DNA of 46,542 bases, from positions 1 through 46,542 of the forward strand of contig JAYKJB010000098.1 of NCBI GenBank assembly GCA_035285325.1, in the 5' to 3' direction. Below are positions 14,753 through 26,806 of this stretch, piece after piece. The translations under genes were made by a program, and so were the position numbers. Within the stretch, counting starts at the first letter, position 1. Every line of letters starts with the position of its first letter. The stretch comes from Candidatus Sericytochromatia bacterium (GTDB lineage Bacteria > Cyanobacteriota > Sericytochromatia > S15B-MN24 > JAQBPE01). Under the pieces are notes generated by a model. That model saw only the letters and a list, made by a program, of their open reading frames with translations. It searched no databases and was not told where the DNA came from.

Positions 14753-17611
14753 ATGAGGAAAACCTCTCCATCCAAGTCCAAGACCAAGGTCAACAAAGAA
14801 ATTGTCATTTGCGAGGCCAATGACCTCGCGGTCGTCTTTGAAAACGGACGCGCCTCCGAGTTTTTTCTACGACACGGTGACCAGCTGGTGGGTGACATCA
14901 TCTGGGGCCAAGTGGACGCCGTCGTTCCCGGCATCGAAGCAGCCTTCGTCAACATCGGGCAAGAACGGAACGGCTTCATCCATGTGGCGGACTTGCCTTC
15001 GATGCAAGCGCCGCGCAAGCAGTCTGCCCCCAAGAAACCGACCATCAAGGTCAGAGATCGGATTCTGGTTCAAATCGCCAAAGCGCCGACAGGCAGCAAG
15101 GGCGCGCGCTTGACCGGCCGAATCACGATTCCGGGACGTTTTTTGGTGCTGGTGCCCCACGACAACCGCGTCTCGATTTCGCGGCGCATCACGGAGGGAG
15201 CAGAGCGCGAGCGCCTACGCAACCTCACCTTGAACCTCAAGGACCCAGGTCACGGCCTGATCGTCAGAACTGAAGCGATTGGCCGCACCGAGGAGGAGCT
15301 TCGTCAGGACATCGACGAACTGATCGAGATCTGGGCCGACATCCTCCACCAGGTCCAGATTGTCGATCCTCCGGCGCTGCTGCACCGAGACAGCGACCTG
15401 ATACACCGCGTCCTGCGTGACGCGCTGACGGGCGATGTCAGCAAAATTATCGTTGATACCCATAACGGCTACCACAAGGCCTGTGAAATCCTGCAAGGTT
15501 GGATGCCTGAGGTCGTGGACCAAGTCGAGTTGCACGAGGGAGCCCCATCGATCATGGAACGCTACAAGATCAGTGAAGAGTTGGACGCTGCGATCTCGCC
15601 AAAGGTCTGGCTCCCGAGCGGGGGCTACCTCGTCCTGGAGCATACCGAAGCGCTGACCGTCATCGACGTGAACAGCGGCCGCCTCACGCAGAGCAAGTCG
15701 CTCGCGGAGACGGTCCTGAGGACCAACATCGAAGCCGCGGGCGAAATTGCGCGCCAGCTGCGCTTGCGTGACATCGGTGGCATCATCGTGATCGACTTCA
15801 TCTCGATGGATGAGAGCAAAGACCGGCAAAAGGTCTACCAGGCCTTTGTGGAAGCGCTCAAACAAGACAAGAGCCGGCCTCAGGTGACCAATTTCTCCGA
15901 GCACGGTCTGATCGAAGTGAGCCGCCGCCGTCAGGGGCAGAACCTGCTGGAGCAGCTGACCCTTCCCTGTGATCTGTGCGGGGGAACGGGCCGCAAGAAA
16001 GCCAGCCACCTGCTCTCAGAGACCCCGGTGGCACACGCGCAGCGCGTGGACCGAATGGGTGAGGAAGCCGCCGAGATCTTTGAAGAGATGGAAGCCGGCG
16101 AAGAGGAAGACCTGCTGCTTGACCTCGGCGAGGGAAGCGAGGCGGGCGTGGGAGAACGTGAGGGAGAAGACGGCCCCCGTCGCCGTCGTCGTCGCCGCCG
16201 TCGTGGCCGCGGCCGTGGCGGTGCGGAGCAGGTTTCGGTCGGGCCCATTCTGTCCGAACCTGGCGATGCGATGATCATGGAAGAAGAGCTGTTCTCGGGG
16301 GAACCGGTGCTGGTCGCGCAACCCGCCCGCGGTCGCCCGGGCCGTCCTGGCGGCGAACGCCAGGGGCGCCCAGGAAGTGACCGTCAGGAGCGCGGCCCTC
16401 GTCCCGCGCAGGCCAGCGCGCCCAGAGGGCTCGACCAAGATGAGCTCGGCCTCGTAGAAGAAGTGGATCTGTTCGGTGATGCTGGGGCCCGCGATTTGCG
16501 GGGCCGTGACGGTGGGCGCGACGGTGGTCGTGAGGGCGGGCGCGAAGGTGGCCGCCAACGTGACGGCCGGGAGGGTCGCCGCGACCGCGGCTTCGGCGGC
16601 GGGCGGGAACGCTTCGGCGATCGCGACCGATTCGGCAATCGCGATCGCGTCGGAGGACGGGAACGGTTCGGTGGTCGGGAGCGCCCCGCAGGCGGCGAAG
16701 CCCGTCCGGCGCAACCGACCGTCGCGGCTGAGGCCAGTGGCTCGTTGCACGTTTCCGCACCTGCTCCGCGGGTACGGCGGGTGGAACGTCGTCCAGAAGG
16801 GGCTGAGGCCCCGATCACGGCTCGTCGCGTGGAGCGGCACGAACCATCGGCAGCAGCCCCCGCCCCGGCGGCCAAAGCGCCGGCAGCCCCCCCGGCGTCT
16901 GCACCTGCGGCACCGAAGGCGGTCGCCCCTGTGGTGCCTGCTCAACGGAGCGTGGCCGCCGAGAAGCCCCGTCCGGCACCCAAGCCTCTGCCCGTGCCGG
17001 AAGAACTCGCTGAGACGGCTGTCCCAGGTGTGTTTGTCCTGAAGAAGAAGGGCTCCGAACGCCCCAGCCTGGATGCCCTGTTGGGCATGTCGGGTGAGGA
17101 TGCTGGACAGACCACGCCGGCGCCGACCAGCAAAACCAAAGCCGCCAGCAAGACCAAGACAGACGCCAAGGCGAGCACGGTGACCTCCGCCAAGCCGTCC
17201 GTCGCGGAAAAGGCGCCTGAAAAGACCACCAAAGCGGTCAAGAAGGCCCCAAGCGGAGCGGCCGGCAAGGCCGAGGCAACCAGCACGGATGCGGCGGGAG
17301 CGACAGCCGTCAAAGCCACCGCCAAGAAGGTTGCCGCCAAGAAACCGGCAGCCTCCAAGGTGAGTGAGGCAGCTCCGGCTGCGGAAGCGAAGACGGCCAG
17401 CAAGGCGGCGACGGCCAAGACGGCACGCACGGTCAAGGCGGAGCCCGCAACGGCGGAGGCCAAGGCACCGAGCAAGAAGACCGCGACCAAGGCTTCAGCC
17501 GAAAAGGCCACTGCCAAGGCCGCCGTCGGTACGGTAACGGCGAAAGCCGCAGCCAAGAAAACCGAGGGCAAAGCGCCGGCCAAAAAGGTGGCCGCCAAAG
17601 CGGGCTCTTGA
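14753..17611 (+). CDS. rne: Ribonuclease E/G with a long RG-rich and Lys/Ala-rich tail
   Basis: Endoribonuclease that initiates mRNA decay and processes stable RNA. The N-terminal ~415 residues carry the S1 domain with an insertion (GDIIWGQVDAVVPGIEAAFV), the 5'-sensor and RNase H-like parts, and the DNase I-like site with metal ligands Asp305 (VIDVNSG) and Asp348 (VIDFI), both shifted by two relative to E. coli. The Zn-link is C406-X2-C409 (CDLCGGTG). Beyond it, ~530 residues are disordered: an acidic stretch, nine consecutive Arg (476-484), an RG/DR-rich segment around 575-650, and from ~783 a Lys/Ala-rich tail with repeated AKK and KKT units like histone H1. The tail probably binds RNA and degradosome partners. 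The ATG at 14753 has only a weak ribosome site. Confidence 0.95.
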   Translation: MRKTSPSKSKTKVNKEIVICEANDLAVVFENGRASEFFLRHGDQLVGDIIWGQVDAVVPGIEAAFVNIGQERNGFIHVADLPSMQAPRKQSAPKKPTIKVRDRILVQIAKAPTGSKGARLTGRITIPGRFLVLVPHDNRVSISRRITEGAERERLRNLTLNLKDPGHGLIVRTEAIGRTEEELRQDIDELIEIWADILHQVQIVDPPALLHRDSDLIHRVLRDALTGDVSKIIVDTHNGYHKACEILQGWMPEVVDQVELHEGAPSIMERYKISEELDAAISPKVWLPSGGYLVLEHTEALTVIDVNSGRLTQSKSLAETVLRTNIEAAGEIARQLRLRDIGGIIVIDFISMDESKDRQKVYQAFVEALKQDKSRPQVTNFSEHGLIEVSRRRQGQNLLEQLTLPCDLCGGTGRKKASHLLSETPVAHAQRVDRMGEEAAEIFEEMEAGEEEDLLLDLGEGSEAGVGEREGEDGPRRRRRRRRRGRGRGGAEQVSVGPILSEPGDAMIMEEELFSGEPVLVAQPARGRPGRPGGERQGRPGSDRQERGPRPAQASAPRGLDQDELGLVEEVDLFGDAGARDLRGRDGGRDGGREGGREGGRQRDGREGRRDRGFGGGRERFGDRDRFGNRDRVGGRERFGGRERPAGGEARPAQPTVAAEASGSLHVSAPAPRVRRVERRPEGAEAPITARRVERHEPSAAAPAPAAKAPAAPPASAPAAPKAVAPVVPAQRSVAAEKPRPAPKPLPVPEELAETAVPGVFVLKKKGSERPSLDALLGMSGEDAGQTTPAPTSKTKAASKTKTDAKASTVTSAKPSVAEKAPEKTTKAVKKAPSGAAGKAEATSTDAAGATAVKATAKKVAAKKPAASKVSEAAPAAEAKTASKAATAKTARTVKAEPATAEAKAPSKKTATKASAEKATAKAAVGTVTAKAAAKKTEGKAPAKKVAAKAGS

Positions 17612-22844: not shown

Positions 22845-23642
22845 ATGGCCGGACGACGAAGCGTTTTTAACTACGTCAAAGGACTTTTCGGGGGTGAGCC
22901 CTCCCGCCTGCCCTCCCCTGGGCGGCGCCCGCCTGTCGCTCCGCGGCCCATCCCGGCCGCCTCGCTGACGCCCAAACCAACTGACCCCGATGCGCTCAAT
23001 CCCGCGACCATCACCCACGTGGGTCGCGTGCCGGATGGACGCGAACTGGTTCGAACCCTGGGCCTGGGGTCCTACCTGGTCGACCGGGAATTGCCAACGA
23101 TCTGCTATTTCCTGCAAGGCCACGTGGCGGAAATTCCCACAGCCGAATTGCGGCATCTGTTCACCTGTTTGATGGAAAAACGCCACTTCGACGAATTTCG
23201 GGTCCAGTACGTGGACCTCTTGAACGCCGCCTCGTTTGAACTGCAGGCCCGCTCAGGGAGAATCAAACGTCCCAGTGAATCCAGCAAAGGCAAACCTGGG
23301 GCGGCCAAGCCGCTCCCGCGCCGACCAATGGGAGGGGCTGCGCTGCCGGCCTGGCCCGACGCGGAAAATCCCGCAACCATCACACGAGTCGGGCGGTTTC
23401 AGGGTGATGCGGAACTCATCATGACGCTCGGTTTGGGAACCTTCGTCGTGCATCGGGAACCGCCGCGCCTGCGCTACTTCGACCGCGGTCGCGAATGGGA
23501 GGTCCCGCCCCACGAGGTCAACGTCTTGATCGACTCCTTACAGGCCAAACTCGACACCGCCGCTCATCAAGCCAGCTATGATGATCTGCTGCAGGTTGCC
23601 AAAATCCTGCAACAGCAGCGCGAGAACCGCCGAAGGCCCTGA
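22845..23642 (+). CDS. Orphan protein with two ~85-residue repeats
   Basis: I do not recognise this 265-residue protein. After a basic, Pro-rich N terminus it holds two copies of one domain. Copy 1 is residues 52-136 (22998-23252), beginning NPATITHVGR. Copy 2 is residues 175-259 (23367-23621), beginning NPATITRVGR. Shared positions include TLGLG, a following RE-P, YF, E-P and Y-DLL; I count roughly 30 identities over 85. A Lys/Pro-rich linker separates them. There is no signal peptide or membrane span, so it is probably cytoplasmic. The ATG at 22845 has a -10-like TATAAG 26 bases upstream. A GTG at 22785 is possible but has no ribosome site. Confidence 0.6.
   Translation: MAGRRSVFNYVKGLFGGEPSRLPSPGRRPPVAPRPIPAASLTPKPTDPDALNPATITHVGRVPDGRELVRTLGLGSYLVDRELPTICYFLQGHVAEIPTAELRHLFTCLMEKRHFDEFRVQYVDLLNAASFELQARSGRIKRPSESSKGKPGAAKPLPRRPMGGAALPAWPDAENPATITRVGRFQGDAELIMTLGLGTFVVHREPPRLRYFDRGREWEVPPHEVNVLIDSLQAKLDTAAHQASYDDLLQVAKILQQQRENRRRP
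22998..23252 (+). repeat. Internal repeat, copy 1
   Basis: Codes for the first ~85-residue unit (NPATITHVGR to the segment before the linker). The similarity to copy 2 is at protein level, so the duplication is old. Confidence 0.7.
23367..23621 (+). repeat. Internal repeat, copy 2
   Basis: Codes for the second ~85-residue unit (NPATITRVGR onward), aligned without a gap of note to copy 1. Confidence 0.7.
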
Positions 23643-23764: not shown

Positions 23765-24328
23765 ATGTTCAAGACCGTGCTCGGTCATCAGACCGCTGAG
23801 GCAGCGGCGTTTTCGCTGTTGCAAGCCCTGCGTCAGGTGCATGAAACCGAACTTGCCCCCGTTTCCCCCTTGCGTATCAGCTACCAGGGCGATGTCGACC
23901 CTTTGACATGTGGTCCATCTCAGCGAACCGGCGGGGATGTGGGACTGGTGCTCGAGGTGACGGCGGAACGCACACAGCCTGCGCGACGGCTGTGGGTGGT
24001 CGGTGGGCATCAACAGGGCACCCCTTGCCTGCACATCCAGGTAGAACACGCCCCTCGCCCCTGGCACCTGCTATTCAAGGCCCCGACCTTCGGATACGCG
24101 CAGAGCGGAGGCCTGCGACTTCAAGATCGCCTGCTCTTCCCGAGCAGCGACCCGTTGTACCGGGAACGCGGCCAGGCTGCTTTGCGCCTGGCAAAAGCCT
24201 GGCAAGTGCCCCTGAGAGACAGCTGGTGGCAACTGGGCTTCTGGCATCATCACGACGGAAGATGGAGTTCGGACAGCCCGCGTCGGGTCCTCGCCATGGC
24301 CTGGCTGCAAAGCAATCTGCAGGCCTGA
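23765..24328 (+). CDS. Hypothetical protein
   Basis: I do not recognise this 187-residue protein. It has no signal peptide or membrane span. It is Trp-rich near the end (DSWWQLGFWHHHDGRW), and its middle alternates hydrophobic and polar residues as in beta-strands (LWVVGGHQQGTPCLHIQVEH, then WHLLFKAPTF). The ATG at 23765 has GAGG 10 bases upstream; the in-frame stretch before it to 23687 is basic and looks non-coding. It follows the tandem-repeat orphan by 122 bases in the same direction and is convergent with the kinase gene. The reading frame is favoured over its shadows by its protein-like composition. Confidence 0.5.
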   Translation: MFKTVLGHQTAEAAAFSLLQALRQVHETELAPVSPLRISYQGDVDPLTCGPSQRTGGDVGLVLEVTAERTQPARRLWVVGGHQQGTPCLHIQVEHAPRPWHLLFKAPTFGYAQSGGLRLQDRLLFPSSDPLYRERGQAALRLAKAWQVPLRDSWWQLGFWHHHDGRWSSDSPRRVLAMAWLQSNLQA

Positions 24329-24407: not shown

Positions 24408-26246
24408 TCAGGGGACCACTGAGCGCATCCAGCGCAAACAACGGGTGGCACCGTGCCAGCGGGCCCAGCGCCCTGCCAGCAAATCAGAGGCGAGTGCGGC
24501 CGTCAGACGCTGGCGCATCGGCTGGGAGTCAGGACTGAGCAACCAACAGGTGAGGCGTCGAACGAGCCATTCTCGATCGATGCTGGGGTCGGCCAGCAGG
24601 TTCTCTCCCAGCGCGGCAATCCGCTCCCAGTCAATATCGGGGTCCCCCACAACAGCCTCGAATAGCGTCTCGCGCAGGCCAGCGCCGTCAGGGGAGAGGA
24701 ACCAGTCGACGCCGACTTGCAGGACCTCTCCGATTCGGAAATCTGGGTCCCGCCTCGCCAGCCGTAAGAGTTCCTCCAGTCGGTCCCAGTCCAGGCGCCC
24801 ATCACGCACCAGTTCCCGCAAAAAACGGTCCCGCAGGGCTTTTCCGCCCTCCGTGAGCAGCAATTTGGCCGCGAAGGGGATGGAAACATCCAGCGCATGA
24901 AAATGCGGATCAAGTTGCAGGCCTATGCCCTCCAGGGAGATCAAGGTGCGGATGATCATCGAGAACGAGACGGGAACACGCAGGCGATAGCGATAAAAAA
25001 TGTCTGCCAGCGGCTCTGTCATCTCGCGAAAGGTGGGGCGATGCCCCAGCGGTTGATAGGTGGCGTCGAGAATCCAGCGAATGGTCGGCTTCAACGGAGC
25101 CGGGTCCTTGCCTGGTTCGATAAAACCTAGCGCTGCCATGTCGCCCACCAGGGCATCCACATCCTGATCCACCAGATGCAAGAAGGTGTCGACCAGTCGC
25201 AGTTGCATCGGTCTCGGCAATTCGCCAACCAGGCCGAAGTCGATGAAGATCAGGCTGCCCGCCTGATCGACCATGATGTTCCCCGGGTGGAGATCGGCGT
25301 GGTAGAAGCCATCCTCCAGCAGTTGCTTCAAGTTGACGTGAACGGCGTGCTTGACCAGACGTGGAGGGTCAATCGCCAGGCGATGGAGGGCCGGCAAATC
25401 CGTGACCCGGACCCCGTGCATGAATTCCATGGTCAACACACGACGTGAGGAATAGGCTCGATACATCTTCGGCACCGCCACCCCAGGAAAGCGTGCGAAA
25501 TTGGCCCGAAAACGGTCAGCGTTATCGGCCTCCCGACGATAGTCAATCTCGGCGTGCAAATTCCGGTCAAACTCATCGAGAATCTCGACCAGGGGCAAAC
25601 TCCCCAGAGCGTCCGTGTACCGCGCCACCCATCCTGCCAGCAGACGCAGGGCGGCCAGGTCGACCGCGAATCGCTCGAGCAGGTCCGGCCGCTGGACCTT
25701 GACCGCGACCTCCTCGCCAGTCCGCAGGCGAGTCTGATACACCTGTCCCAGGCTTGCCGCTGCAATGGGCTCGGAGGGAAAGTCGACGAACAACTGCCCT
25801 ACCGGTTGCCCAAGTTCCTCTTCGATGAACCGACGAGCCAGTGGCGTCGAAAAGGGCGGAACGCGGTCCTGCAGGTGGGCCAGTTCCTCGATGAAGCTCA
25901 AAGGCAGCAGGTCAACCCGCGTGGAAAGGGCTTGACCGACCTTGATGAAGGTCGGGCCCAGCGCAACACACTGCTCCCGCAGCCAAGCCGCCAGCCGGCG
26001 CTCGGCGTTCTGGGAGGCCGCAGGGTCCTCGGCCAATTGCCTGGCCTGGCGACGGGCCCAGGCGAAGCGAACGGCCACCCAGACCACCTGCAAGGTGCGC
26101 CGCAGAATGCGCCGCCAGCGGGTCGCATCCGGAGCAGCACGCAGCACCGGCAACGCCACCGTAGCGGGGGAGGTGGAAGCGGGAGCGGGCAGGGCGAGGT
26201 TCGCTCGTCTCGCCGCGGGGGGATTCAGCGCTGAATCACGCCGCAC
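24408..26246 (-). CDS. ABC1/UbiB-family atypical kinase
   Basis: Member of the UbiB/ADCK/AarF family, ATPases or kinases linked to quinone and isoprenoid lipid metabolism. The 612 residues show the family-specific KXGQ motif (Lys102 in TFIKVGQALSTR), the Ala-rich nucleotide loop in IAAASLGQVY, the VAIK-like VAVKVQRP, the catalytic loop YHADLHPGNIM and the metal-binding IDFGLVG. The C-terminal ~180 residues are helical and poorly conserved. The GTG at 26246 overlaps the end of sodC by 22 bases. The first ~40 residues are Ala/Pro-rich, and a later GTG (near 26159) is also possible. A quinone-linked role fits the Rieske protein at 45620. This link is inference. Confidence 0.9.
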   Translation of the reverse strand: MRRDSALNPPAARRANLALPAPASTSPATVALPVLRAAPDATRWRRILRRTLQVVWVAVRFAWARRQARQLAEDPAASQNAERRLAAWLREQCVALGPTFIKVGQALSTRVDLLPLSFIEELAHLQDRVPPFSTPLARRFIEEELGQPVGQLFVDFPSEPIAAASLGQVYQTRLRTGEEVAVKVQRPDLLERFAVDLAALRLLAGWVARYTDALGSLPLVEILDEFDRNLHAEIDYRREADNADRFRANFARFPGVAVPKMYRAYSSRRVLTMEFMHGVRVTDLPALHRLAIDPPRLVKHAVHVNLKQLLEDGFYHADLHPGNIMVDQAGSLIFIDFGLVGELPRPMQLRLVDTFLHLVDQDVDALVGDMAALGFIEPGKDPAPLKPTIRWILDATYQPLGHRPTFREMTEPLADIFYRYRLRVPVSFSMIIRTLISLEGIGLQLDPHFHALDVSIPFAAKLLLTEGGKALRDRFLRELVRDGRLDWDRLEELLRLARRDPDFRIGEVLQVGVDWFLSPDGAGLRETLFEAVVGDPDIDWERIAALGENLLADPSIDREWLVRRLTCWLLSPDSQPMRQRLTAALASDLLAGRWARWHGATRCLRWMRSVVP

Positions 26247-26806
26247 GCGATGCGGGGCCCCCCACTGATGCCCGACTTGGGTTCTCCGGAAATGCCCTGG
26301 TCAGGGTTCTTGTGCAAGATAATGGCGCTGCCGTCCGCATCAAAGACTGACAGCGGTCCGTCCGACAGGGTCACCCGGGTGGTCCAAGCGTCCAGTCGAC
26401 CGTGTCCCCGCTCATCCACCACCAGGTTGGGCAAGTCGCCGAGGTGATAAGGATGGTTGACGTCGGGATCAGAATTGCCGGCAGGACCAGGATCGAAGTG
26501 ACCACCCGCCGACTTGAATGGGGGTGTGCAGTCCCCGACCGCGTGGATGTGTACGCCGTGGCGTCCTGGGGCCAGCTTGGCGGGGCTACCCTGAACATCG
26601 ATCACCACGCGCACCGCCCGACCATCGTCATTTTGGACCTCGATCAGGGTGGCTGAGCCCACAATGCCATCACCAGCAATCGCGGCCTGGGCACGAGCCA
26701 GTTCGCGCCCGGCCGGCGCGTGACCGTGACCTTCCTGGAACAGGACAGCACATCCAGCCAGCACAGACGCCGTCAGCAGAGCAATCACGAATCGATGGGA
26801 ACGCAT
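26225..26806 (-). CDS. sodC: Cu/Zn superoxide dismutase lipoprotein
   Basis: Converts superoxide to hydrogen peroxide outside the cytoplasmic membrane. The 193 residues start with a lipoprotein signal: lipobox LAGC with Cys19. Copper ligands are His86 and His88 (HGVHIHAVGDC), the bridging His is His103 (GGHFDPG), Zn ligands His121 and Asp124 (HLGDLPNLVV), and the last Cu His is in AIILHKNPDQ. The disulfide Cys are Cys93 and the one in ACGVI near the C terminus. The His that normally comes nine residues after the bridging His aligns with Ser112; His118 may replace it. The ATG at 26806 has AGGAGGT 3-9 bases upstream. Its end overlaps the UbiB-like gene. Confidence 0.93.
   Translation of the reverse strand: MRSHRFVIALLTASVLAGCAVLFQEGHGHAPAGRELARAQAAIAGDGIVGSATLIEVQNDDGRAVRVVIDVQGSPAKLAPGRHGVHIHAVGDCTPPFKSAGGHFDPGPAGNSDPDVNHPYHLGDLPNLVVDERGHGRLDAWTTRVTLSDGPLSVFDADGSAIILHKNPDQGISGEPKSGISGGPRIACGVIQR

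What the first reader, a model, noticed from the sequence alone, without database searches (positions are those of the whole stretch)
22845..23642. Orphan tandem-repeat protein built from an unrecognised ~85-residue domain
Two diverged copies start with NPATIT and share TLGLG. I know no family with this pattern. A duplicated new domain is worth modelling.
Basis: partly seen in the sequence, partly recalled or inferred. Interest (0 to 1): 0.6.

Follow-up and report, generated by a model that had tools for sequence, protein, structure and literature searches.

The report
Tandem PipX-like protein, partner unknown
This is a real gene for a small protein made of two copies of the same ~90-residue building block, found so far in only two related bacteria of a non-photosynthetic branch of the cyanobacteria; the block may be a distant cousin of PipX, a cyanobacterial adaptor protein, but that kinship is suggested rather than proven.

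Summary
Window 22845-23642 (+) encodes a 265-aa protein with two copies (residues 49-143 and 172-265) of a ~90-residue domain, 44% identical; all 2,000 shuffles score far lower. By sequence the domain is indeed unrecognised: no significant match in Pfam, NCBIfam, PHROGs, PDB sequences, phages, plasmids or viral contigs. It is not a strict orphan: one ortholog (50% identical, same two-copy layout and neighbours) exists in a second genus of the same family, with nothing convincing in 18 class and 386 phylum genomes or the GTDB contig scan. The duplication predates the split of the two genera.

AlphaFold2 gives five strands then two helices (pLDDT 85). The top PDB fold hit is PipX, the Tudor-like NtcA/PII adaptor of cyanobacteria (top for the domain model, top three for the full-length model), but E is only 0.05-0.1 and TM 0.32. 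Profile comparison is suggestive (1 of 400 shuffles as high; best of 79 real-family segments); calibrated pairwise tests are not significant. PipX's partner-contact loop is not kept, and the window genome shows no PII, PipX or true NtcA. Best reading: a two-module protein-protein adaptor of PipX-like architecture with a different partner.

The parts
22845..23642 (+). Gene of the tandem-domain protein, 265 aa
   Evidence: ATG supported by alignment with the start of the ortholog (M at the same column)
22860..22895 (+). Conserved N-terminal segment (residues 6-17, SVFNYVKGLFGG; ortholog LFEFVKGMLGG), predicted short helix, followed by a Pro/Gly/Arg-rich linker
   Evidence: possible amphipathic or partner-binding segment (inference)
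22989..23273 (+). Domain copy 1 (residues 49-143)
23274..23357 (+). Pro-rich linker between the two domains (residues 144-171), low predicted confidence
23358..23639 (+). Domain copy 2 (residues 172-265); AlphaFold2 model: strands 6-14, 18-25, 27-33, 36-42, 45-48, helices 51-62, 71-92 of the 94-residue segment
23765..24328 (+). Downstream same-strand gene of unknown function, kept next to the tandem gene in both genomes (31% identity); likely co-transcribed
   Evidence: co-transcription is inference from the 122-nt gap

Best explanation
The gene encodes a soluble two-module adaptor. Each module is predicted to be a small five-stranded sheet (Tudor-like) followed by a helical hairpin, the same overall architecture as the cyanobacterial adaptor PipX, to which it may be distantly homologous. 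The two modules are joined by flexible Pro-rich linkers behind a conserved short N-terminal helix. Most likely the protein bridges two partners, or binds an oligomeric partner bivalently, in the way PipX binds NtcA or PII through its Tudor-like surface; here the loop TLGLG stands in place of PipX's TLYAQR, so the partner must differ. Shown: the duplication, conservation, synteny and absence of known sequence families. Predicted: fold. Inferred: adaptor function, bivalency and partner class.
For: Domain model pLDDT 85, pTM 0.75, five strands + two helices. Top PDB hit of 350,542 chains is PipX 9guk_H, 26% identity over 81 columns, prob 0.66; with the full-length model the top three are all PipX (9guk_H, 9guk_L, 2xko_D). 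PipX is a Tudor-like domain plus two C-terminal helices (PMC6243067). Profile-profile score to 50 PipX sequences 19.8, reached by 1 of 400 column shuffles; PipX was the best of 79 real-family segments, 21.1 against 15.9 for the next. Same phylum as PipX. The most conserved positions (NPATI, EL, TLGLG, RE, YxDLL) lie in predicted strands, a turn and the last helix, and no enzyme-like motif is seen.
Against: Foldseek E-values are 0.046-0.099 and TM-score only 0.32 with rmsd 9.6, so the packing does not superpose well. The full-length model has pLDDT 49. Two pieces of sequence similarity imply different strand registers: NP...ELxxTL puts predicted strand 2 on PipX's third strand, while the C-terminal half (FDRGREWE-helix-helix) matches in order. 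Calibrated pairwise tests against all PipX are weak (25, 237, 161 and 94 of 600 shuffles reach the observed score). PF12058 does not match any copy. No intermediate sequences were found.
Confidence: 0.45

Rival explanations
1. A genuinely new, lineage-restricted small domain whose likeness to PipX is chance; it would still most likely be a protein-binding module, duplicated in one family of non-photosynthetic Cyanobacteriota.
For: No significant match in any sequence library; fold hits all above E 0.01; calibrated pairwise tests weak; chance hits of the PipX profile of similar strength exist, e.g. the C-terminal part of DnaG primase in a group of small-genome members of the phylum.
Against: PipX tops two fold searches and the profile decoy tests, and belongs to the same phylum.
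Confidence: 0.38
2. A KOW/Tudor-like module of the NusG/CarD/RNA polymerase-binding or RNA-binding kind, not specifically related to PipX, acting in transcription or translation.
For: Five-stranded sheet plus helices; Tudor-like domains commonly bind RNA polymerase, and the fold is shared with NusG (PMC6243067, PMC7344720); basic C-terminal tails (RRKSRKR, RENRRRP).
Against: No NusG, CarD or Mfd chain among the 50 best PDB matches listed; no Pfam hit to KOW or CarD.
Confidence: 0.12
3. The ORF is spurious or an annotation artefact.
For: None beyond the absence of database matches.
Against: Ortholog at 50% identity with conserved layout and synteny; codon-position pattern.
Confidence: 0.01

Closest known systems
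PipX (Pfam PF12058), NtcA co-activator and PII partner of oxygenic cyanobacteria
   Same: Size per unit (~90 aa), predicted five-stranded sheet followed by two helices, best fold hit in two searches, best profile match among decoys, same phylum
   Different: Two copies in one chain, extra N-terminal segment and linkers, no Pfam match, PipX contact loop not kept, low TM-score, genome without PII/PipX/true NtcA, different gene neighbourhood
NusG/KOW and other Tudor-like transcription factors
   Same: General class of small bent beta-barrel used for protein contacts
   Different: No sequence or fold match found here
ATP synthase epsilon/delta subunit and Acb2/Tad1 hairpin proteins (next fold hits)
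   Same: Small sheet plus helical hairpin
   Different: Weaker scores, about 10% identity, no sequence match; likely analogy of shape only

Membership tests
PipX (PF12058) | Match to the Pfam profile above its cut-off (25 bits) | tested here: not met
   No match in G000 or G001 at E <= 0.1; no copy hits it in hmmscan
[quoted passage not shown]
   Model has five strands + two helices and PipX is the top fold hit, but E 0.046 and TM 0.32
PipX (PF12058) | Contact residues for PII/NtcA (E4, Y6, F12, Y32, Q34, R35, L36; PMC3340408) | tested here: not met
   Loop TLYAQRLFF is replaced by TLGLG[TS][FY] in all four copies
PipX (PF12058) | Statistically significant homology by profile-profile comparison | tested here: inconclusive
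   hhalign P = 0.005, probability 7%; 1/400 shuffles; best of 79 real segments
PipX (PF12058) | Partners PII (glnB) and NtcA encoded in the genome | tested here: not met
   No PF00543 in G000, one in G001; NtcA model matched only far below cut-off by CRP-family paralogs
PipX (PF12058) | Binding to PII or NtcA | not testable with these tools
   Needs interaction assays
KOW/NusG, CarD | Profile match | tested here: not met
   No Pfam match at E <= 5 or 10

The most novel reading that the evidence does not exclude
PipX, held to be unique to oxygenic cyanobacteria, has a distant tandem-domain relative in a non-photosynthetic sister class, working without PII and NtcA; PipX-type adaptors would then be older than, or have spread beyond, the nitrogen-control network in which they are known.
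Probability: 0.35. Interest if true: 0.65.

Novelty: new variant of a known kind. Interest (0 to 1): 0.4.

Why it matters
PipX has been described only in oxygen-making cyanobacteria, with no relatives outside, and its origin is unknown. A relative in a non-photosynthetic sister lineage would give a first outgroup for asking what a PipX-type adaptor did before PII and NtcA became its partners. If the kinship fails, what remains is a well-documented but narrow new domain family.

Tried and rejected
Pfam RVT_thumb (E 0.27) and DUF3865 (0.088), PDB MarR-family (0.4), HU and ribosomal L20 (E 0.45-1): below any threshold. Weak phylum-wide hits of the domain profile (E 0.007-0.1): scattered partial matches in unrelated or broken frames, taken as chance. 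A set of weak PipX-profile hits in a group of small-genome members of the phylum looked like a diverged PipX but is the C-terminal part of DnaG primase, a useful example of how strong a chance hit can be. A combined PipX + tandem-domain profile found no intermediate in the class. Alignment A5 vs A6 gives 99.95% but is circular, since A6 contains the A5 rows; it is not used. Five relatives of the same order were checked around their cobalamin adenosyltransferase genes, with the filters of hmmsearch off: no counterpart.

Full report
What is there. The ORF 22845-23642 (+) encodes 265 aa. A conserved N-terminal segment (residues ~6-17) is followed by a Pro/Arg-rich linker, domain copy 1 (49-143), a Pro-rich linker and domain copy 2 (172-265). 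The two copies align at 40% over 88 residues with BLASTP E = 4e-17 and score 137 against a shuffle maximum of 46 in 2,000. NPATIT and TLGLG are exact in both.

Distribution. The window lies in a 3.8-Mb, 98.6%-complete genome of the phylum Cyanobacteriota; its nearest relative with a name in the tools is the MAG 'Cyanobacteria bacterium RYN_339'. None of 18 genomes of the class has PsaA/PsaB, while Synechococcus elongatus does in the control, so this is a non-photosynthetic class; I take it to be Sericytochromatia-like (inference). An ortholog, 50% identical with both copies, is in G001, the only other genome held for the family. No other genome of the class has it, no convincing one among 386 of the phylum, none in the GTDB contig scan beyond RYN_339, none in viral contigs, plasmids or phages. 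Copy 1 matches copy 1 of the ortholog (60%) and copy 2 matches copy 2 (59%) better than the copies match within a protein (44-46%) or across (46-53%), so the duplication is older than the split of the genera. Both genomes keep the order gcvPB-like gene, NAD-binding oxidoreductase, cobalamin adenosyltransferase, an opposite-strand membrane protein, the tandem gene, and a downstream gene of unknown function; G001 has an extra acetyltransferase gene between. That order does not by itself name a pathway.

Known families. No significant match in Pfam, NCBIfam or PHROGs, or among PDB sequences, with the protein or, for Pfam and PDB, with the four copies.

Structure. The four-row alignment of the copies gives a domain model of good confidence (pLDDT 85, pTM 0.75): five strands, then two helices. 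The full-length model is poor (pLDDT 49) but repeats the same elements in both copies. Foldseek against the PDB puts PipX first for the domain model (9guk_H, E 0.046, 26% identity) and in the first three places for the full-length model. PipX is a Tudor-like domain followed by two helices (PMC6243067), described as found only in cyanobacteria (PMC8696166). The TM-score is low (0.32), so this is a lead, not a match. The two fold searches are not independent of each other, nor of sequence, since Foldseek also uses sequence.

Testing the PipX lead. I took 50 PipX sequences from the phylum. PF12058 finds none in the window's class. Profile-profile comparison gives score 19.8, P 0.005, probability 7%; 1 of 400 column-shuffled versions reaches it, and the reversed profile scores 12.1. 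Among 79 real-family segments built from the fetched loci (the tandem family itself set aside), PipX came first at 21.1, next a CRP-family segment at 15.9. On the other side, pairwise alignments calibrated over all PipX are not convincing (25, 237, 161, 94 of 600 shuffles), and the N-terminal and C-terminal similarities imply conflicting strand registers. I put homology to PipX at about 0.35-0.4 and the architecture reading somewhat higher.

Mechanism. PipX uses its Tudor-like surface, with Y32, Q34, R35 and L36 among the contacts, to bind PII or NtcA (PMC3340408). In all four copies here that loop is TLGLG[TS][FY], conserved but different. The window genome shows no PII, no PipX, and only generic CRP-family regulators far below the NtcA cut-off. 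So even if related, it cannot run the PII-PipX-NtcA switch. The most likely role is a bivalent protein-protein adaptor, with the conserved TLGLG loop and the YxDLL helix as candidate contact or core elements. This step is inference.

Verdict. It is a two-species family with a predicted PipX-like architecture. Interest is moderate: narrow distribution, and an unproven but testable link to a regulator thought unique to oxygenic cyanobacteria.

Noticed in passing
23765-24328 (+); L026:10382-10972 (+): Downstream gene of unknown function, conserved next to the tandem gene in both genomes (31% identity) and not convincingly found elsewhere in the class.
   Followed up: partly
G000 (whole genome): No PII (PF00543) found although the genome is 98.6% complete and 13 of 14 control genomes have one; most of the class also lacks it (5 of 18 have a match).
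   Followed up: partly
L099-L101 (G032, G089, G068): The PipX profile gives weak repeated matches to the C-terminal part of DnaG primase in small-genome members of the phylum; probably chance likeness, but a trap for automatic annotation.
   Followed up: yes
14753-17611 (+): Ribonuclease E/G-like protein (recognised by eye) with a long Arg/Gly-rich and Lys/Ala/Thr-rich low-complexity C-terminal half.
   Followed up: no
26225-26806 (-): Cu/Zn superoxide dismutase (PF00080) next to an ABC1/UbiB-type kinase gene (PF03109), in a non-photosynthetic member of Cyanobacteriota.
   Followed up: no
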